Assembly: GCF_003967075.1 (NCBI RefSeq)
Contig: NZ_AP018664.1
Coordinates: 3,286,001 to 3,350,000 of the forward strand
Source: Sphingobium amiense
Lineage (GTDB): Bacteria > Pseudomonadota > Alphaproteobacteria > Sphingomonadales > Sphingomonadaceae
Length of the DNA stretch: 64,000 nucleotides
Direction: 5' to 3'
In this document: positions 24,759 through 34,293 of the stretch, in pieces
Numbering within the stretch: position 1 is the stretch's first letter
Layout: each line of letters opens with the position of its first letter
Notes under the pieces: model-generated
What the model saw: only the letters and a program-made list of their open reading frames with translations
What the model was told of the DNA's origin: nothing
The model's database searches: none
Position numbers and translations under genes: made by a program

Positions 24759-25394
24759 CTATCCGGCCGAACGGCCGCGCGGGCGGGGGTCGGTCCAGCG
24801 GAACGCAGAATCGGCGACGGGCACGCCGTAGCGCTGGCCGGTGAGGCGGACGGCGGTGCGATTATTCTGCGAATCGAGCGCCACCCAGCCGTAGAGCTGA
24901 AGACCCGCGGGGCTGGCCGCGTCGCGCCGGAAGATCATCGTGATCGTGCCGAATTCCGGGCGGCGCGGATCGCGTGCCTGAACGCTCAGGATCGCAGGAT
25001 CGTCGGTCGGGACGACCTTGCCGAATTTCGACAGATCCTTCGACGGGTCGATCAGCGCGGCGAGCGGCGAATTGCCGATGGGCCAGCGCTGCACCTGCCG
25101 CACTTCATAGTCGATGACGGTCAGCGCCTTGCCATCGCCCACGATCAGGAGCGGAACGCCCTTCTGATACTGGAAACGGATCTTGCCCGGCTGCTTCAGC
25201 GTCAGCTGGCCGGTCAGCGTCTGGCCGTTGCGGTCGGTCTGGCTGAAATCGGCCGTCATGGTGGTGACGGCGCGGATATAGGATTGCACCTTCGCGAGAT
25301 CGGATTGGGTCTGCTGCTGCGCGATGGCGGCACCTGCCAGCGTCAGGGCGGGCGCGCCAAGCGCGAGCAGGAGGGGCGCGGTCATGCGCTTCAT
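24759..25394 (-). CDS. lolA: Outer membrane lipoprotein carrier protein LolA
   Basis: 211 residues; periplasmic chaperone carrying lipoproteins from LolCDE to the outer membrane. A signal peptide (MKRMTAPLLLALGAPALTLAGAAIA|QQ) precedes the LolA fold: YIRAVTTMTADFSQTDRNGQTLTGQL, KPGKIRFQY-like KQPGKIRFQYQKGVPLLIVGDG, and the DDPAIL/GTITMIFRRD strands. ATG 25394 is preferred because GGAG lies nine bases before it; an in-frame ATG at 25409 has none. The stop is followed by 260 bases without a gene before xth, containing C-rich sequence and a strong hairpin. Confidence 0.92.
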   Translation of the reverse strand: MKRMTAPLLLALGAPALTLAGAAIAQQQTQSDLAKVQSYIRAVTTMTADFSQTDRNGQTLTGQLTLKQPGKIRFQYQKGVPLLIVGDGKALTVIDYEVRQVQRWPIGNSPLAALIDPSKDLSKFGKVVPTDDPAILSVQARDPRRPEFGTITMIFRRDAASPAGLQLYGWVALDSQNNRTAVRLTGQRYGVPVADSAFRWTDPRPRGRSAG

Positions 25395-25504
25395 CGGGAT
25401 CGACTCCATGTTGTTCAGAAAGCGGGTTCTATGTCGTGGCGATTGAACCCGTTGTGAACCCGGTCGTTCCGTTGCGACAACATTCCTTCGGCGACCCGAG
25501 CGAC

Positions 25505-25532
25505 AAAAAAAGGCCGGTCACGAGGACCGGCC
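25505..25532 (-). terminator. Rho-independent terminator of ftsK / small RNA B
   Basis: Minus-strand stem GGCCGGTC/GACCGGCC (plus 512-519 and 525-532 of the 25,000s), perfect 8 base pairs with a 5-base loop, followed by seven T (plus A-run 25505-25511). It ends leftward transcription coming from ftsK and the candidate RNA. Confidence 0.88.
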
Positions 25533-25637
25533 GGAAAGTTTTTAGGAGAGGATGCCTGAAAGGCCCGTTCCTTATGCGCGGGCATCGGCCATGCCGCAAA
25601 TGCGAAGAACGTCGTTCCGGTTGCGCAATGTGCAATC
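25505..25637 (-). ncRNA. Candidate small RNA B, downstream of ftsK
   Basis: The minus strand between ftsK and lolA is homologous, base for base and without gaps over 98 positions (25540-25637), to 32345-32442 (73 identities). Read 5' to 3', it has a variable stem (GGCAT/ATGCC), a small conserved stem GCCT-TTC-AGGC, an unpaired anti-Shine-Dalgarno stretch ATCCTCTCCTAAAA, then a terminator hairpin with seven T. The homology starts six bases after the ftsK stop, so it may have its own promoter inside ftsK or be cut from the ftsK mRNA. The 5' end is unknown. Confidence 0.6.
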
Positions 25638-25643
25638 GCCCCG

Positions 25644-27968
25644 TCAGAGCGGGTTGCCATTCTCGTCGCGCAGAACTTCGCGGCGGCCGACATGGTTGGG
25701 GGGGCCGACCAGCCCTTCCTCCTCCATCTTTTCGATGAGGCGCGCGGCGCTGTTATAGCCGACGCGGAGCTGGCGCTGCAGCCAGCTCGTCGACGCCTTC
25801 TGGTTCTCGAACACGAGCTGGCAGGCCTTGCGGAACAGTTGCGCGTCGGGGCTGTCGTCGCCCAGATCGACGCCATCGAGCGCGAAGCTGCCTTCCTCCG
25901 GCTCTTCGGTGACGGCGGAGATATAGTCGGGCTGGCCCTGCGCGCGCCAGTGATCGGCGACCACGCGCACCTCGTCATCGGACACGAAGGGGCCATGGAC
26001 GCGCATCAGCCCCTTGCCCCCGTGCATGTAGAGCATGTCGCCCTTGCCCAGCAGTTGCTCCGCGCCCTGTTCGCCGAGGATCGTGCGGCTGTCGATCTTC
26101 GACGTGACGAAGAAGCTGATGCGGGTCGGCAGGTTAGCCTTGATGACGCCGGTGATGACGTCGACCGACGGGCGCTGCGTCGCGAGGATCAGGTGAATGC
26201 CCGCGGCGCGCGCTTTCTGCGCGAGGCGCTGGATCAGGAACTCGACTTCCTTGCCCGCCGTCATCATGAGGTCGGCCAGTTCGTCCACCACCACGACGAT
26301 CTGCGGCAGCGGCTGGAAATCGAGCTGCTCCTCCTCGTAGATCGGCTTGCCGGTTTCGCCGTCATAGCCGGTCTGGACGCGGCGGCCCAGGGGCTTGCCC
26401 TTCGCCTTCGCGGCGCGGACCTTTTCGTTATAATTGGCGAGGTTGCGGACGGAAATGGACGCCATCATGCGATAGCGGTCCTCCATCTGCTCCACCGCCC
26501 ATTTGAGCGCGCGAATCGCCTTGGCCGGCTCCGTCACCACGGGCGAGAGCAGATGCGGGATGTCGTCATAGGTCGACAGTTCCAGCATCTTGGGGTCGAT
26601 CATGATGAGCCGTAGCTGATCGGGCGTCATGCGGTAGAGCAGCGACAGGATCATGGCGTTGAGGCCCACCGACTTGCCCGATCCGGTCGTGCCCGCGATC
26701 AGCAGGTGGGGCATGGGCGCCAGATCGGCGATGATCGGTTCGCCCGAGATATTCTTGCCGAGGATGATCGGCAGCGTCGCTTCCTGCGCGAACTGTTCGG
26801 AGGTGATGAGTTCGCGGAAGGACACACCCTCCCGGTGCGCGTTGGGCAGTTCGATGCCGATGACGGTGCGGCCGGGAATGGTCGCGACGCGCGCCGACAG
26901 CGCCGACATGTTGCGCGCGATGTCGTCGGCCAGCGCGATGACGCGGCTTGCCTTGATGCCGGGCGCGGGTTCCAGTTCATACATGGTGACGACCGGGCCG
27001 GGGCGCACTTCGGTGATGTTGCCCTTCACATGAAAGTCGTCGAGCACCGATTCGAGCAGGCGAGCGTTCCGTTCCAGCGCGGCCTTGTCGATCTTGCCGC
27101 CCTGATTGGCGGGAATCGGATTGAGGAGGTCGGGCGAGGGCAGCGAGCTGTGGCCGAACAGATCGTCCTGGCTGACGGGCGCCATGGCGCGCTGCGCCGG
27201 GGCGGGCTTGGGCGACTGGATCGTGATCGGCGGCTTGGGTTCGTTCATCACCTGCCTGCGCGGGGGGATGACGCGCTCCGCCGGTTCGTCATCCTCGTCG
27301 AACAGATCGTCGCGCGGCGGGGAGCCTGCCAGCGCAAGGGCCGGACGCGGCAGGCCGAGGCGCGGGAGGCTGGGTCGGCGCAGGGCGATGATCGGCTTTT
27401 CGAGCGCAAGGCTGCGATACCAGACGAAGAAACCGGCGATCAGAGCGGCGATGACGAGCGCGCCCCTGATCCACGGCGCGGCGGCAGGCGCCTGCGCGGT
27501 CAGGCTGGCGATCCCCTTGGCGGTGACGAGACCGATGACGCCGCCCCAGCCCGCGGGCAGGCCGACCAGCGGCTCGGTCTGGAACAGAGCCAGCGCAATA
27601 CCGATAAGCGCGATGCCGATTAAGCTCTTGCCGAACTGCCCCTTCCAACCGCTCATGTCCTGATCGCCCCACAGCCGCCGCGCGGTGATCGCCATCAGCG
27701 GGAGGATCAGCGCCACGGGCACGCCCAGCAGCCAGAGCAGGAAATCGGCGGCCCACGCGCCGGGCTGCGCCATGATGTTGGCGACATGATCGCCCGCCAC
27801 GGTGTTCATCGACGGATCGCTGGGCGCATAGCTGAGCAGCGCGAGCGCGACGAACAGGGTCGCGGCGATCAGCGCCAGCGCGCCGATCAGCGCGCCGCTG
27901 CGAATGAGGCTGCGCTTGAGCATCTCGCGCCATTCCGGCTGTCTCTTGACGGTGCGGCCGACGGCCAT
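25644..27968 (-). CDS. ftsK: DNA translocase FtsK
   Basis: 774 residues; couples chromosome dimer resolution and terminus segregation to division. Four transmembrane segments fill roughly residues 15-190 (LIGALALIAATLFVALALL and following). A fairly short linker with DEDDEPAERVIPPRRQ leads to the motor: Walker A IAGTTGSGKSVGLN, LIMIDPKMLELS and VVVDELADLMM, then ATQRPSVDVITG. The C-terminal winged-helix gamma domain (KASTSWLQRQLRVGYNSAARLIEKMEEEG) would read KOPS-type sequences. ATG 27968 is chosen over 28004 because it starts with the family's short cytosolic leader. Small RNA B follows directly. Confidence 0.94.
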   Translation of the reverse strand: MAVGRTVKRQPEWREMLKRSLIRSGALIGALALIAATLFVALALLSYAPSDPSMNTVAGDHVANIMAQPGAWAADFLLWLLGVPVALILPLMAITARRLWGDQDMSGWKGQFGKSLIGIALIGIALALFQTEPLVGLPAGWGGVIGLVTAKGIASLTAQAPAAAPWIRGALVIAALIAGFFVWYRSLALEKPIIALRRPSLPRLGLPRPALALAGSPPRDDLFDEDDEPAERVIPPRRQVMNEPKPPITIQSPKPAPAQRAMAPVSQDDLFGHSSLPSPDLLNPIPANQGGKIDKAALERNARLLESVLDDFHVKGNITEVRPGPVVTMYELEPAPGIKASRVIALADDIARNMSALSARVATIPGRTVIGIELPNAHREGVSFRELITSEQFAQEATLPIILGKNISGEPIIADLAPMPHLLIAGTTGSGKSVGLNAMILSLLYRMTPDQLRLIMIDPKMLELSTYDDIPHLLSPVVTEPAKAIRALKWAVEQMEDRYRMMASISVRNLANYNEKVRAAKAKGKPLGRRVQTGYDGETGKPIYEEEQLDFQPLPQIVVVVDELADLMMTAGKEVEFLIQRLAQKARAAGIHLILATQRPSVDVITGVIKANLPTRISFFVTSKIDSRTILGEQGAEQLLGKGDMLYMHGGKGLMRVHGPFVSDDEVRVVADHWRAQGQPDYISAVTEEPEEGSFALDGVDLGDDSPDAQLFRKACQLVFENQKASTSWLQRQLRVGYNSAARLIEKMEEEGLVGPPNHVGRREVLRDENGNPL

Positions 27969-28125
27969 AACTGCCCCATGTCCCCTAAATGTTCTGTCCG
28001 GCACAATGCGCCGAGGCGGGAGTCGCCGTCAAGTGCGGGTGCGGGCGGTTCGTCGCGGCATCCGTAACAATGCGTATCGCGGCACCATGGGCCGGGCGGT
28101 AGACCCGCGTCAAAGGAGCCGACCG

Positions 28126-30812: not shown

Positions 30813-32114
30813 TTAGAAGCGCAGCGTCACCGATGCCGCGACCTGATCCGCGTTGCCGCTGGTCTGTGCCAGCGTCGTCGCCGTGACGGTGGCGGGCGCG
30901 GGATAATAGCTGTCGGGGCGGATGATGTTCGCCTTTTCCACGAAGGTATGCGCGTAGCTGAGGTTGAGCGCAGCGGCGGGCGAGATGTTGAAGGTCGCCC
31001 CGCCGGTCAGCCACACGCGGTCGCCATCGGGCACGCGGGTCGTCAGATGCTGCGGATTGGTGGGCGTGCGGTCGAACATCGTTCCCGCGCGCAGCGTCAG
31101 CGCGGGGCTGACATCATATTCGGCACCGGCGCTGAACGAATAGCTGTCGCGATAGTCCAGTTCCTTGTTGGTGGTGCCAGTCGCCGATGTGACCGCGATA
31201 CCCCTGAACTTCGACCAGTTATACCATTTGCCCGTCAGCATCGCGCGCAGGCCGGGCGTCAGCCGGTGCATCATCGACACGGTGACGATGTCGGGCAGGT
31301 TGAGCGGCGCGGTGGCGGCGAAGCTGCCATTGCCCGCCGCGATCGGGCCGAGCAGCCCGGAAACGGTCTGCGTCCCTTCCAGATGCTGATTGATGCCCTT
31401 GCGGAAATGGACGCCGAAATTGGTGTCGCCGGTGGTGTAGAACACGCCTGCGTTCCAGCCGACCGACCAGTCATGCCCCTTGAGGCTGGCGAAACCGTCG
31501 GCGGGCGCCAGCGGCGAAAGCTGCGGCAGGGCGTTGGTGAGCGTCGCCTTCACATATTGCACGTCGACGCCGCCGCCCACGGACAGGCCATCGGTCAGCT
31601 TATAAGCGAAGGACGGCTGGATATTATAGGTTTTGAGGTCGGTGTAGAGCGAGTCGTAGCGGCCGAAGAAACCGTCATCATATTCAAGCTTCAGGCCGAA
31701 GGGCGCGTTGACGCCGAGGCCCAGCCACAGCCGGTCGCTGACCTGCGCGCTGGCGTAGAAGCTGGGGACCGGAATGACGCTGTCGAAGGGGTTGCCGCCG
31801 TCATTGCCCGTGATCGGAGCGCGCACGGGCAGGCCGGGGATCGACCGGTAGCTGCCGCGATTGGTCTGATGCGCCGACGCCATCAGGGCGGACGCGCCCG
31901 CCGAAAGCTGGATACCCTGAAGCTGCGTCATCGCGGCGGGGTTGAAATAGATGGTGGAGGGGTCATCGCCCGCCGCGGCGCCGCCGGACAGGGCGCGCCC
32001 GGTTTCGATGGGCGACTGTTCCTGAAGGTAGAAGCCGCCGGCGAGGGCGCTTCCCGGCGCGGCGAGCGCGAGCGTGGCGAGCAGGCTGGGGACGAAACGG
32101 TGGCGAAGGGACAT
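30813..32114 (-). CDS. FadL/OmpP1/TodX family outer membrane channel
   Basis: 433 residues. A signal peptide (MSLRHRFVPSLLATLALAAPGSALA|GGFYLQEQS) is followed by the FadL hatch-like N-terminus: GRALSGGAAAGDDPSTIYFNPAAMTQL, the family's NPAgm element. Alternating beta-strands continue to a C-terminal SVTLRF with terminal Phe, the BAM signal. FadL channels import long-chain fatty acids or hydrophobic compounds; the substrate is not predictable. AGAGGA precedes ATG 32114 by about six bases and could pair in part with small RNA A/B. The next upstream element is candidate small RNA A. Confidence 0.9.
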   Translation of the reverse strand: MSLRHRFVPSLLATLALAAPGSALAGGFYLQEQSPIETGRALSGGAAAGDDPSTIYFNPAAMTQLQGIQLSAGASALMASAHQTNRGSYRSIPGLPVRAPITGNDGGNPFDSVIPVPSFYASAQVSDRLWLGLGVNAPFGLKLEYDDGFFGRYDSLYTDLKTYNIQPSFAYKLTDGLSVGGGVDVQYVKATLTNALPQLSPLAPADGFASLKGHDWSVGWNAGVFYTTGDTNFGVHFRKGINQHLEGTQTVSGLLGPIAAGNGSFAATAPLNLPDIVTVSMMHRLTPGLRAMLTGKWYNWSKFRGIAVTSATGTTNKELDYRDSYSFSAGAEYDVSPALTLRAGTMFDRTPTNPQHLTTRVPDGDRVWLTGGATFNISPAAALNLSYAHTFVEKANIIRPDSYYPAPATVTATTLAQTSGNADQVAASVTLRF

Positions 32115-32311
32115 GGCAGATCCTCTGCTGAAGGCGACTCTTATCGTGCGGTCCGGTGGCGCGTCGAAAGGGCGCGACCCGGTTCTATGGCCCGCCGCTT
32201 AGCAAAAATAAGGTTAATTTCCAGTGCCCGTGCCGGGCGGACATGCCGCTTTTCCGGAGCGCCGTGACAGTTACGCTACGGCTGCGCCGTGGAGGATCGC
32301 GGAAAAAAGGC

Positions 32312-32337
32312 AAAAAAAAGCCGCCTCGGAAGGCGGC
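32312..32337 (-). terminator. Rho-independent terminator of small RNA A
   Basis: Minus-strand stem GCCGCCT/AGGCGGC (plus 32320-32326 and 32331-32337) with a tetraloop, followed by eight T (plus A-run 32312-32319). It also terminates leftward readthrough from pgm and isolates fadL. Confidence 0.88.
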
Positions 32338-32442
32338 CTTGAAGTTTTAGGAGAGGATGCCTGAAAGGCCCGTTCCTTTTGCGGTGCAGCGTGCTTCGCC
32401 GCAAATGCGAAAAGTGCGGGCACGGTTGCGTTTGTTGCAATC
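32312..32442 (-). ncRNA. Candidate small RNA A, between pgm and fadL
   Basis: The otherwise empty 392 bases between fadL and pgm hold a second copy of the element downstream of ftsK. A block of 34 bases (32345-32378) is identical to 25540-25573; further blocks GCCGCAAATGCGAA, GGTTGCG and TGCAATC lie at identical spacing. Read on the minus strand it folds into TTTGCGG/CCGCAAA, then GCCT-TTC-AGGC, then unpaired ATCCTCTCCTAAAA, then a terminator. The middle stem differs in sequence between copies but is placed the same. The 5' end and promoter are not identified; the remaining sequence up to pgm (32443-32506) shows nothing clear. Confidence 0.62.
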
Positions 32443-32506: not shown

Positions 32507-33883
32507 TCAGTGCCTGTCGGGCAGCGAAAGGCCCACGGCGGACAGGTGCGAATCGAGTTCCGCCAGCAGACGAATCAGGGCGGCGGTATCATCGCCCTCC
32601 GCGCGCACGACCAGTGCGCCCTGCGTATTGGACGCGCGCAGCAGCCACCAGCCATCGGCGGTGCGGACGCGCACGCCGTCCAGCTCCACCATGTCCGCGC
32701 CCGCGCTTCGCAACCGGCTGGCGACGCGTTCCACGATGCCGAATTTCTCCTCGTCGGGGACGGGAATGTGCAGTTCCGGAGTGATCGCGCCGGTCGGCAT
32801 CGCGTCGGCCAGAGCCGCGACCGGGCATCGCGCAGCGGACAGGAGCCGGATCAGGCGGACGGCGGCATAGAGTGCGTCGTCATAGCCCGGATGATCGTCG
32901 GCGAAAAAGAGATGCCCGGTCGTTTCGCCGCCCAGCGCCGCGCCAATCTGCTTCATTCTGGACTTGATATGGCTGTGCCCCGCCTTCCACATGTCGGGCC
33001 GCCCGCCCAGCGTGGCGATGCGGTCGAACACCGCCTGGCTGGTCTTCACATCGGCCACGATCGCCGCGCCGGGGTGCTTTTGCAGCATATCGGCGGCGAA
33101 GATGCCGAGCAGCCGGTCGCCCGCAATGGCGCGGCCCTGATGGTCGATCACGCCGATGCGGTCGCCATCGCCGTCGAAGGCCACTCCGAAATCGAGCCGC
33201 TTTGAGAGGACCAGCGCGCGCAGATCGGCAAGGTTGGCGTCCACGGCAGGATCGGGATGATGATGCGGGAAGTGACCGTCGACACGGGTGAAGAGCAGAT
33301 GATGCTCACCGGGCAGGCGCTGCGCCAGTTGCTCGACCGCCGGACCGGCGGCGCCGCTGCCCGTGTCCCAGCCGATGCGAAGCGGACGGCCATCGAAACC
33401 CTGCATCAGCCGGTCGACATAGGTTTCGAGCATGTCGACGCCGGTTGCGCGACCCGACCCGCTTTCCCAGTCGCCCTGCGCCGCCATTTGCCCGAGCCGC
33501 TGGATGTCCGCGCCGAAGAAGGGCGCATGGGCGTGCACCAGCTTGAAGCCATTCTGGTCGGCGGGATTATGGCTGCCGGTTATCTGTATGCCGCCGTCCA
33601 CATCGCCCGTCATTTCGGCATGATATAGCATCGGCGTCGGGCCGAGGCCGATGCGGAGCACGTCGATGCCGGTCTGCGTCAGCCCTTCGACCAGCGCGCT
33701 TTCCAGCATGGGCGAACTCAGCCGTCCGTCATAGCCCACTGCCACCCGGCGTCCGCCTGCGCGCGCGATGACGGTGCCGAAGCTGCGGCCGAGCGCCCAT
33801 GCGTCGGCCTCGTGCAGCGTCTTCCCCACGGTGCCGCGCACATCATATTCGCGGAGCAGGGTGGGATGGAAACTATGGCTCAC
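32507..33883 (-). CDS. Phosphomannomutase/phosphoglucomutase
   Basis: 458 residues of the alpha-D-phosphohexomutase family, interconverting 6- and 1-phosphates of mannose or glucose for exopolysaccharide and LPS precursors. The four signature loops are present: active-site Ser QITGSHNPADQNGFK, metal-binding FDGDGDRIGV, sugar-binding GGETTGHLFF and phosphate-binding LLRASNTQGAL. The N-terminus is LLREYDVRGTVG. The start is GTG 33883, which overlaps the J-domain gene's stop by four bases (GTGA). It is the last gene of the mipZ - J-domain - pgm unit. Confidence 0.92.
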   Translation of the reverse strand: MSHSFHPTLLREYDVRGTVGKTLHEADAWALGRSFGTVIARAGGRRVAVGYDGRLSSPMLESALVEGLTQTGIDVLRIGLGPTPMLYHAEMTGDVDGGIQITGSHNPADQNGFKLVHAHAPFFGADIQRLGQMAAQGDWESGSGRATGVDMLETYVDRLMQGFDGRPLRIGWDTGSGAAGPAVEQLAQRLPGEHHLLFTRVDGHFPHHHPDPAVDANLADLRALVLSKRLDFGVAFDGDGDRIGVIDHQGRAIAGDRLLGIFAADMLQKHPGAAIVADVKTSQAVFDRIATLGGRPDMWKAGHSHIKSRMKQIGAALGGETTGHLFFADDHPGYDDALYAAVRLIRLLSAARCPVAALADAMPTGAITPELHIPVPDEEKFGIVERVASRLRSAGADMVELDGVRVRTADGWWLLRASNTQGALVVRAEGDDTAALIRLLAELDSHLSAVGLSLPDRH

Positions 33884-34293
33884 GGTTCCGCGCGGTCGGC
33901 GAGCAAGATGTCGCGCGCGGCGTTGATCTGCGCAGCGAGCGCTTCGGTGCCGCCCTTGTCGGGATGGACCGACGCGATGAGGCGGCGGTGCGCGGCGCGG
34001 ATGGCGGCGGCGCTCGCGTCGGGCGCGACACCCAGCAGCGCGCGCGCCTGCGCCACGGTGTCGGCGCGGGGCGGGGCGGCAGGTGCGATGCGGCGCCTGC
34101 CCTGCCTGGCGAAGAAGAGCGCAGCGCCGAGCAGCAGCGGCGCGCCGATCACCGGCTTGCCCTTCGCCGCCATCACCGCGCCGACCAGCGCCGCCCCCAG
34201 CACCATGCCATCCTTTGCGCTCATGCGTTGGAGCTTCCCCGTCCAGATCAGCCAGACCGCAAGGCCCGCGAGCAGCAGCGCCAGCAGGCCCAT
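33880..34293 (-). CDS. Membrane-anchored J-domain (DnaJ-like) protein
   Basis: 137 residues. Two N-terminal transmembrane helices (LLALLLAGLAVWLIWTG; MVLGAALVGAVMAAKG... LLLGAALFFA) are followed by a cytosolic J-domain (about 78-135): QARALLGVAPDASAAAIRAAHRRLIASVHPDKGG with the essential HPD intact. It resembles small Tim14/DjlC-like membrane J-proteins that recruit DnaK. Its ATG shares one base with the mipZ stop (TGATG), and its stop overlaps the GTG of pgm, implying coupled translation across the three genes. Confidence 0.87.
   Translation of the reverse strand: MGLLALLLAGLAVWLIWTGKLQRMSAKDGMVLGAALVGAVMAAKGKPVIGAPLLLGAALFFARQGRRRIAPAAPPRADTVAQARALLGVAPDASAAAIRAAHRRLIASVHPDKGGTEALAAQINAARDILLADRAEP

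What the first reader, a model, noticed from the sequence alone, without database searches (positions are those of the whole stretch)
25505..25637. Structured RNA downstream of ftsK, homologous to a second copy 6.8 kb away
Seen directly: 25540-25637 aligns to 32345-32442 without gaps over 98 bases with 73 identities (hand count), including a 34-base identical block. Both copies run on the minus strand into a perfect GC hairpin followed by seven or eight T. Between a small conserved stem (GCCT/AGGC) and the terminator lies the unpaired ATCCTCTCCTAAAA, which can pair with Shine-Dalgarno sequences. The middle stem changes sequence but stays in place, which hints at structure rather than protein. 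This design resembles alphaproteobacterial small RNAs with exposed CCUCC-type motifs. I do not know a named family for it.
Basis: partly seen in the sequence, partly recalled or inferred. Interest (0 to 1): 0.85.

Follow-up and report, generated by a model that had tools for sequence, protein, structure and literature searches.

The report
Sibling anti-Shine-Dalgarno sRNAs in sphingomonads
The two copies are small regulatory RNA genes of a known family (Rfam suhB/mmgR), but in sphingomonads they form a branch with an altered target-binding sequence and a shared control region that a LysR-type regulator probably reads.

Summary
Observation confirmed: 73 of 98 identities, 34-base identical block. 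The family is not unnamed: both copies pass the Rfam RF00519 (suhB/mmgR) gathering score. The genome has five such siblings plus two weaker canonical copies.

By the predicted start, 71 of the 98 homologous bases are promoter, not RNA. The predicted RNA is 60-62 nt: GCCU/AGGC hairpin, mostly open AUCCUCUCCUAAAA, covarying terminator.

New here: the core differs from canonical UUUCCUCCCU; this type looks family-specific. The five siblings share a module, TGCA-N5-TGCA near -61 plus TTYGCANTTG at -35, found in 144 of 182 loci. In 14 of 14 genomes one sibling lies divergent to a LysR gene. Of 40 single-copy genomes four lack that LysR, and the palindrome pattern is missing from exactly these four. 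A PhaR-type site adjoins -10 in 85 of 182.

Best reading: LysR-activated, partly PhaR-repressed sibling sRNAs that occlude Shine-Dalgarno sequences. Transcription, regulator binding and targets are inferred.

The parts
25505..25566 (-). copy 1: predicted 62-nt sRNA (start inferred at GGGCC), between ftsK and lolA
   Evidence: RF00519 47.0 bits over 25497-25571; fold; alignment A2 row 1
25554..25564 (-). copy 1 5' hairpin GCCU-UUC-AGGC
   Evidence: fold; GCCT-N3..5-AGGC in 38 of 40 single-copy-genome loci
25540..25553 (-). copy 1 core AUCCUCUCCUAAAA (anti-Shine-Dalgarno)
   Evidence: mean unpaired probability of CCUCUCCUAA 0.93 over 182 loci; GGCATCCTCTCC in 37 of 40 single-copy-genome loci
25505..25532 (-). 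copy 1 terminator hairpin and seven T
   Evidence: 7 of 9 terminator pairs with changes on both sides across 60 sequences
25597..25606 (-). copy 1 element TTCGCATTTG, overlapping the predicted -35
   Evidence: whole-module pattern found exactly 5 times in the genome, 0 in reversed control
25620..25636 (-). copy 1 palindrome ATTGCA-N5-CGCAAC (T-N11-A; LysR-type operator, predicted centre about -61)
32312..32371 (-). copy 2: predicted 60-nt sRNA, between pgm and a fadL-like gene
   Evidence: RF00519 45.3 bits over 32305-32376; fold
32345..32358 (-). copy 2 core AUCCUCUCCUAAAA
32380..32388 (-). copy 2 PhaR/AniA-type site TGCACCGCA (YGCRNYGCR), next to the predicted -10; absent from copy 1
   Evidence: own loci with the site: copy 2 and the LysR-linked sibling; consensus from PMC12542648
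32402..32411 (-). copy 2 element TTCGCATTTG, overlapping the predicted -35
32425..32441 (-). copy 2 palindrome ATTGCA-N5-CGCAAC
25644..28004 (-). ftsK (neighbour of copy 1)
   Evidence: Pfam FtsK_SpoIIIE, FtsK_alpha, FtsK_gamma, FtsK_4TM
24759..25409 (-). lolA (neighbour of copy 1)
   Evidence: Pfam LolA
30813..32114 (-). FadL/TodX-type outer-membrane transport gene (neighbour of copy 2)
   Evidence: Pfam Toluene_X
32507..34060 (-). phosphoglucomutase/phosphomannomutase gene (neighbour of copy 2; stretch given to Pfam, start codon not settled)
   Evidence: Pfam PGM_PMM_I-IV

Best explanation
Both copies are genes for ~61-nt trans-acting sRNAs of the suhB/mmgR (RF00519) kind, in a Sphingomonadaceae branch whose core is CAUCCUCUCC instead of UUUCCUCCCU. 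Shown by sequence: the RNA anatomy, four to six siblings read in each of 14 genomes of the genus, a promoter module common to the siblings, linkage of one sibling to a divergent LysR gene, and joint absence of that LysR gene and the palindrome. Inferred: a GcvA-like LysR regulator binds TGCA-N5-TGCA at about -61 and the -35-proximal TTYGCANTTG, and switches the sibling set on. PhaR/AniA, released from DNA when polyhydroxybutyrate granules form, represses those siblings that carry YGCRNYGCR next to -10. The RNA, probably with Hfq, pairs its CU-rich core with Shine-Dalgarno regions (of the type AGGAGAG) and lowers translation of carbon-metabolism and other genes.
For: RF00519 above gathering for both copies and for 5 loci of the genome. 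Terminator covariation: whole structure 97.9% of cells paired, covariation score 0.331 against a shuffled mean of 0.165, 0 of 500 shuffles as high; 6 of 500 reach the number of pairs changed on both sides. Core unpaired, mean 0.93 over 182 loci. Module: palindrome in 171 of 182 unique loci, TTYGCANTTG in 151 of 182, both in 144 of 182 at near-fixed spacing, against 7, 2 and 1 of 1200 random windows. Whole module exactly 5 times in the genome, all siblings, 0 in the reversed control; with a relaxed element two further loci of this genome that are not these RNAs. Divergent LysR beside one of the 4-6 siblings read in each of 14 of 14 genomes and beside 61 of 177 usable loci; Pfam HTH_1 + LysR_substrate. 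Of 40 single-copy genomes, 36 have a LysR orthologue (10 adjacent, 26 elsewhere) and 4 have none at E 1e-60; the palindrome is in place in 35 of the 36 and 0 of the 4 (Fisher p 5.5e-5). PhaR-type site starting exactly 21 nt before CTTTCAGG in 85 of 182; 87 of 182 within 15-24 nt, against a shuffle mean of 0.5 and maximum of 3. S. meliloti PhaR binds such a site at mmgR (PMC12542648, passages). S. granuli SuhB as reviewed: 61 nt, Hfq-dependent negative effect on ThnR translation, positive effect of PHB granules on suhB transcription (PMC6563040, passages).
Against: No transcript, no protein-DNA binding and no target was tested. 30 of the 40 single-copy genomes have no LysR next to the sRNA, and 20 of the 26 LysR genes found elsewhere have no palindrome within 250 nt upstream, so there is no sign of autoregulation there. 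Three of the four LysR-less genomes are one genus, so there are perhaps two independent losses. G052 has the LysR but no palindrome in place. The TTYGCANTTG element survives in two of the four LysR-less genomes, so it may serve the promoter rather than LysR. Copy 1 has no PhaR-type site, and none of its 13-member orthologue group does. The phaR gene of this very genome is interrupted. GGAGAGGATG, complementary to the core, was not at clear gene starts: of 30 sites inspected (38 found) one could be, before a JAB-domain gene.
Confidence: 0.75

Rival explanations
1. Same sRNAs, but the palindrome is read by another regulator; the LysR gene is a conserved neighbour that lies there for other reasons. 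The siblings may then be co-regulated by that other factor, or controlled mainly by growth rate.
For: LysR is adjacent in only 10 of 40 single-copy genomes. A perfect palindrome of this type also lies upstream of a pyruvate dehydrogenase gene of this genome without the -35 element (no module match in L050).
Against: Divergent linkage in 14 of 14 genomes of the genus and down to Zymomonas mobilis at 54% identity. The LysR orthologue and the palindrome are missing from the same 4 genomes. A T-N11-A dyad near -61 with a second element at -35 is the usual LysR layout (recalled, not tested).
Confidence: 0.2
2. Siblings with unrelated control, as reported for Caulobacter SisA-D, whose upstream sequences share no motif; the shared block here is only leftover homology from duplication.
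For: Siblings differ in the -35/-10 spacer and in carrying the PhaR-type site. SisA-D carry unrelated promoters (PMC12559287, passages).
Against: The module is kept at fixed spacing in single-copy genomes across the family (palindrome pattern 36 of 40, in place 35; element 38 of 40) while the sequence between its parts differs, so it is probably under selection and older than the duplications.
Confidence: 0.05
3. The elements are only the 3' ends and terminators of ftsK and pgm mRNAs, with no separate promoter and no trans function.
For: Both lie downstream of, and on the same strand as, ftsK and pgm and end in terminators.
Against: Own promoter module; the same RNA at other loci with unrelated flanks; hairpin and core kept in single-copy genomes (38 and 37 of 40); [quoted passage not shown] granuli (PMC6563040, passages).
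Confidence: 0.03

Closest known systems
Rfam RF00519 suhB / alphaR8 family: MmgR (Sinorhizobium meliloti), SisA-D (Caulobacter crescentus)
   Same: 5' hairpin, single-stranded CU-rich core, Rho-independent terminator; several siblings per genome (as SisA-D); PhaR-type site near the promoter in a subset (as mmgR).
   Different: Core AUCCUCUCC, not UUUCCUCCCU; shared LysR-type operator upstream, whereas SisA-D have no common upstream motif (PMC12559287, passages); looks family-specific. This genome keeps two canonical copies besides, without the module.
SuhB sRNA of Sphingopyxis granuli TFA
   Same: Sphingomonad, 61 nt (60-62 predicted here), Hfq-dependent, positive effect of PHB granules on its transcription (review PMC6563040, passages; the primary paper, doi 10.1111/1462-2920.14360, I saw only as a reference).
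   Different: Its sequence could not be compared here; no LysR regulator of suhB or operator is mentioned in the passages read.
GcvA-GcvB (Escherichia coli and relatives) and LsrB/VtlR-AbcR1 (rhizobia, Brucella, Agrobacterium)
   Same: A LysR-type regulator next to an sRNA that acts on ribosome-binding sites; LsrB needed for AbcR1 (PMC8844928, abstract and passages). For GcvA-GcvB recalled, plus a search listing.
   Different: The RNA is of another family, and the regulator would serve several unlinked siblings. The LysR is GcvA-like but below the GcvA cut-off (195.5 against 288 bits).
CcsR1-4 / cuckoo RNAs (Rhodobacter sphaeroides)
   Same: Several homologous sRNAs per genome in an alphaproteobacterium (PMC10253847, passages); the CCUCCUCCC loop motif is recalled.
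   Different: Processed from one RpoHI/RpoHII-driven transcript with the DUF1127 protein CcaF1; here separate genes each with its own module. The cuckoo-RNA paper itself is not held.

Membership tests
Rfam RF00519 (suhB) | Covariance-model score at or above the gathering score of 41 bits | tested here: met
   47.0 and 45.3 bits; 5 loci in the genome
alphaR8 RNAs as described in PMC12559287 | 10-nt single-stranded core 5'-UUUCCUCCCU-3' | tested here: not met
   Core is AUCCUCUCCU in both copies. Of 75 same-genus RF00519 hits read, 71 have the exact 20-base CTTTCAGGCATCCTCTCCTA, 1 a variant of it and 3 the canonical CCUCCCU. Hence filed under Rfam suhB as a divergent branch, not as a strict alphaR8 member.
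alphaR8 RNAs | 5' hairpin and Rho-independent terminator flanking a single-stranded core | tested here: met
alphaR8 RNAs | One copy next to an N-formylglutamate amidohydrolase gene | tested here: inconclusive
   Not at the window copies; the sibling at C1:1114038 lies about 2 kb from an FGase gene (PF05013, 217 bits), with an acyltransferase gene between
suhB/mmgR sRNAs | Hfq-dependent trans action on mRNAs | not testable with these tools
   No expression or binding data; inferred from PMC6563040 and PMC12559287.
LysR-type regulator | HTH_1 and LysR substrate-binding domains | tested here: met
   PF00126 61.5 bits, PF03466 106.1 bits
GcvA (NCBIfam NF008352) | Score over the curated cut-off of 288 bits | tested here: not met
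   195.5 bits for the own protein, 146.5 for the Zymomonas one
PhaR/AniA operator | YGCRNYGCR core of the published consensus | tested here: met
   Present at copy 2 (TGCACCGCA) and the LysR-linked sibling; not at copy 1 or the other two siblings. Only the core, not the AT-rich arms of the full consensus, was tested.
PhaR/AniA operator | Binding by PhaR | not testable with these tools
   Needs gel shifts; shown for S. meliloti mmgR (PMC12542648, passages)

The most novel reading that the evidence does not exclude
In Sphingomonadaceae one GcvA-like LysR regulator runs a dispersed family of sibling sRNAs through a common operator that each copy carries, and PhaR adds a polyhydroxybutyrate signal to a subset: an alphaproteobacterial counterpart of GcvA-GcvB with one regulator and, in Sphingobium, four to six RNA siblings, some relatives of which ride on conjugative plasmids.
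Probability: 0.6. Interest if true: 0.65.

Novelty: new variant of a known kind. Interest (0 to 1): 0.55.

Why it matters
[quoted passage not shown] Here the siblings share one operator yet differ in a second, PhaR-type site, which gives a directly testable case of common activation with sibling-specific repression. It also offers a mechanism for the positive effect of PHB granules on SuhB transcription described for S. granuli, and a candidate control layer for catabolic pathways of sphingomonads, including plasmid-borne copies.

Tried and rejected
1. Palindrome as a PhaR site: rejected for spacing (TGCA-N5-TGCA against published TGCA-N1-TGCA); the PhaR-type site was found separately, next to -10. 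2. Contiguous pairing through a start codon (GGAGAGGATG): 38 sites in the genome, 5 in the reversed control; 30 of 38 inspected: 4 are siblings, 6 are copies of one repeated element, and one (L285) lies at a possible start of a JAB-domain gene; the others looked like no gene start by eye. 3. Looser target pattern TAGGAGAG-N3..9-ATG: 9 matches at 8 places, 0 in the reversed control; six precede long open frames that look like genes, among them an enoyl-CoA hydratase/3-hydroxyacyl-CoA dehydrogenase (FadB-like), an amidohydrolase, a conjugative coupling protein and a CBS-domain protein, two without a Pfam hit over its cut-off. Leads only: the reversed control is a weak one and no other Shine-Dalgarno variant was counted. 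4. LysR leader as a conserved pairing site for the sRNA: GGAGAGGATG on its sense strand in some Sphingobium loci only; not pursued. 5. A LacI-type operator in the spacer of one sibling group: 2 of 14 by pattern; not supported. 6. 7. First pair count used a structure shifted by one column (where it scored no better than shuffles); repeated correctly. 8. Phage records: no match. 9. Autoregulation of unlinked LysR genes: no clear sign (6 of 26 with a palindrome within 250 nt, 31 of 1040 random windows; positions not consistent). 10. PhaR-type sites in LysR leaders: 43 of 61 against a shuffle mean of 1.7, but random 250-nt windows of these loci have one in 284 of 1040, so this enrichment is less sharp than the -21 peak; one control window at 130-139 nt held 16 of 182, fitting those leader sites. 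11. Invariance of the core and small stem in alignment A2 is no evidence, since its sequences were chosen by that 20-mer; searches give the unselected counts (the first slice missed two loci; one search is right).

Full report
WHAT WAS CLAIMED AND WHAT IS THERE. The two stretches align without gaps with 73 of 98 identities and a 34-base identical run; the next best place in the window gives 47 of 98. Both copies are matched by Rfam RF00519 (suhB, 'Makes More Granules Regulator RNA') above the gathering score of 41 bits: 47.0 bits at 25497-25571 and 45.3 bits at 32305-32376, minus strand. So the elements have a named family.

COPIES. The genome (G000, 4.77 Mb, 7 contigs) has five loci over the RF00519 cut-off, all with GCCTTTCAGGCATCCTCTCCTAAAA, and two weaker ones (39.3 and 27.6 bits) with the canonical CCTCCCT core. 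Of 41 genomes searched (own included) 40 have a match and 39 one over the cut-off; the list of places was cut. I read 86 hits: 7 own, 68 of those listed for 13 same-genus genomes, 11 of other families. Of the 75 same-genus hits 71 carry the exact 20-base core, 4-6 per genome. These 71 fall into nine groups by flanking DNA. The window copies belong to groups present in 13 of 14 (copy 1, ftsK-lolA) and 14 of 14 (copy 2, pgm-fadL) genomes. In the 11 loci that I fetched as pairs because two hits lay close together, the order lolA, sRNA, ftsK, ispG, fadL, sRNA, pgm is kept in 11 of 11. So the 6.8-kb pair is old synteny, not a recent duplication.

THE RNA. From the predicted start at GGGCC the RNAs are 62 and 60 nt and fold into a GCCU-UUC-AGGC hairpin, a stretch AUCCUCUCCUAAAA that is open but for the first CC, and a terminator. 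S. granuli SuhB is 61 nt (PMC6563040, passages); the start here is inferred from this and from promoter spacing, not measured. Over 182 unique loci the stretch CCUCUCCUAA is unpaired with mean probability 0.93. In 60 aligned sequences (own five and every third of the rest, from 168 usable) the terminator has changes on both sides in 7 of 9 pairs; the whole structure has 97.9% of cells paired and no shuffle of 500 reaches its covariation score. The hairpin and core are invariant there by selection, since all 182 loci were picked by that 20-mer. In 40 loci found by covariance model instead, GCCT-N3..5-AGGC is in 38 and GGCATCCTCTCC in 37. Most RNAs read from other families of the order have GCCC/GGGC where these have GCCU/AGGC, one compensatory change.

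A FAMILY-SPECIFIC BRANCH. A covariance model of this type hits 55 of 57 listed same-family genomes (29 genomes without a match were not listed), 53 of the 55 above 40 bits and up to 86; 14 genomes of other families are hit with at most 38.7 bits. The 20-base core was found in at least 120 stretches of named genomes (the scan stopped at its limit). Records with a genus name are Sphingobium, Sphingomonas, Zymomonas, Blastomonas, Novosphingopyxis, Rhizorhabdus, Hephaestia, Sphingosinithalassobacter and Novosphingobium; the rest are labelled Sphingomonadaceae, Sphingomonadales or less precisely. The core differs from UUUCCUCCCU, described as common to all alphaR8 RNAs (PMC12559287, passages).

THE SHARED MODULE. 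Of the 98-base block 71 bases lie upstream of the predicted RNA. In 182 unique loci chosen by the RNA core alone, TGCR-N5-YGCA is found 50-80 nt before CTTTCAGG in 171 and TTYGCANTTG 25-50 nt before it in 151; both in 144. Nearly all lie at 71-73 and 44 nt. Random windows give 7, 2 and 1 of 1200. In the whole genome the combined pattern occurs five times, at the five siblings, and never in the reversed control. With TTYGCR for TTYGCA it also occurs at two loci of this genome that are not these RNAs. In 40 of the 42 family genomes with a single model match (the two weakest, G114 and G124, left out), 36 match the palindrome pattern (35 in place) and 38 the second element, so the module probably predates the copy expansion. 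If the RNA starts at GGGCC, the palindrome is centred near -61 and the second element overlaps -35, the layout of LysR-type activators (recalled).

THE LYSR GENE. The sibling at C1:3057755 is divergent from a LysR gene (Pfam HTH_1 and LysR_substrate), GcvA-like but below the GcvA cut-off. In 14 of 14 genomes exactly one of the siblings read is so placed; of 177 usable loci 61 are, with the LysR start 93-243 nt from the core, down to Zymomonas mobilis at 54% identity. In the 40 single-match genomes LysR is adjacent in 10. Of the other 30, 26 carry one match elsewhere (50-58% identity) and 4 carry none at E 1e-60; none of 10 genomes of other families carries one. The four without it (G113, G117, G123, G136) have no palindrome, while 35 of the 36 with it have one in place (Fisher p 5.5e-5, uncorrected for descent; three of the four are one genus). 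G052 is the exception: LysR present, palindrome not in place. All four LysR-less loci keep a PhaR-type site, and two keep the -35 element.

PHAR. S. meliloti PhaR (AniA) binds sites of the type YGCRNYGCR, among them one at mmgR (PMC12542648, passages). Such a core starts exactly 21 nt before CTTTCAGG, next to the predicted -10, in 85 of 182 loci; 87 of 182 within 15-24 nt against a shuffle mean of 0.5 and maximum of 3. By group: 8 of 14 copy-2 orthologues, 12 of 14 LysR-linked, 7 of 14 in a third group, 2 of 8 in a fourth, 0 of 13 copy-1 orthologues and 0 of 8 in the rest. It is near -10 in 15 of the 40 single-match loci and in none of 11 canonical loci of other families. In S. [quoted passage not shown] Binding is not shown here.

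MECHANISM AND LIMITS. Best reading: a LysR-activated, partly PhaR-repressed set of Hfq-type sRNAs that pair their CU-rich core with Shine-Dalgarno regions. Shown: anatomy, copies, module, linkage, joint absence. Inferred: transcription, who binds, what is targeted. In print: the sRNA family, one sphingomonad member with a target, and PhaR at mmgR. My ten paper searches showed, in their titles, abstracts and the passages I opened, no paper that ties a LysR regulator to these sphingomonad RNAs; subscription papers are mostly missing, and the cuckoo-RNA paper is not held. In Caulobacter the siblings' upstream regions share no motif (PMC12559287), so the shared operator is the distinctive point.

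Noticed in passing
G000:C1:1486002-1488684 (L046, L047): The phaR gene of this genome is split within its PHB_acc_N domain by about 2.5 kb of inserted DNA with inverted ends (TGTTGATTTCC...GGAAATCAACA) and a repeated CGGGGAG: apparently an insertion sequence, so PhaR may be non-functional in this strain.
   Followed up: partly
L072:1501-1610 (G000:C1:1461684), L078:1501-1610 (G000:C1:4008900); relatives L292, L295, L291: The same palindrome plus TTTGCG(A/T)TTG at the same spacing precedes two non-sRNA loci: a 93-aa open frame without Pfam hit beside an EVE-domain gene, and a tiny open frame beside a DUF72 gene. Possible further members of the LysR regulon.
   Followed up: partly
G000:C1:1738375-1738395 (L050): A perfect CGGTTGCATATATTGCAACCG palindrome upstream of a dehydrogenase E1 gene (pyruvate dehydrogenase E1 alpha by my reading; Pfam E1_dh), without the -35 element of the module.
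   Followed up: no
Plasmid records, e.g. NC_008308.1 (pCAR3), CP000700.1 (pSWIT01), NZ_CP016453.1: 66 plasmid records, all with sphingomonad-type genus names in the tally, match copy 1 with its upstream region (E up to 0.01; only 2 cover at least 80% of the query), 30 of them predicted conjugative. Three regions were opened; that gene table lists no RNA genes, so the lack of annotation says nothing.
   Followed up: partly
L048:2260-2330 (upstream of a phasin gene): Two PhaR-type sites upstream of the phasin gene of this genome, read by eye, as reported for S. meliloti phaP genes.
   Followed up: no
G000:C1:118504, 722955, 1023155, 1487884, 2777944, 2851123: Six sites with GGAGAGGATG in identical context among the 30 read: copies of one repeated element; the one at 1487884 lies in the insertion that splits phaR.
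   Followed up: no
G000:C1:1678969-1679048 (L044): Canonical-type suhB RNA (39.3 bits) directly upstream of a tRNA gene, followed by a gene that looks like an integrase.
   Followed up: no
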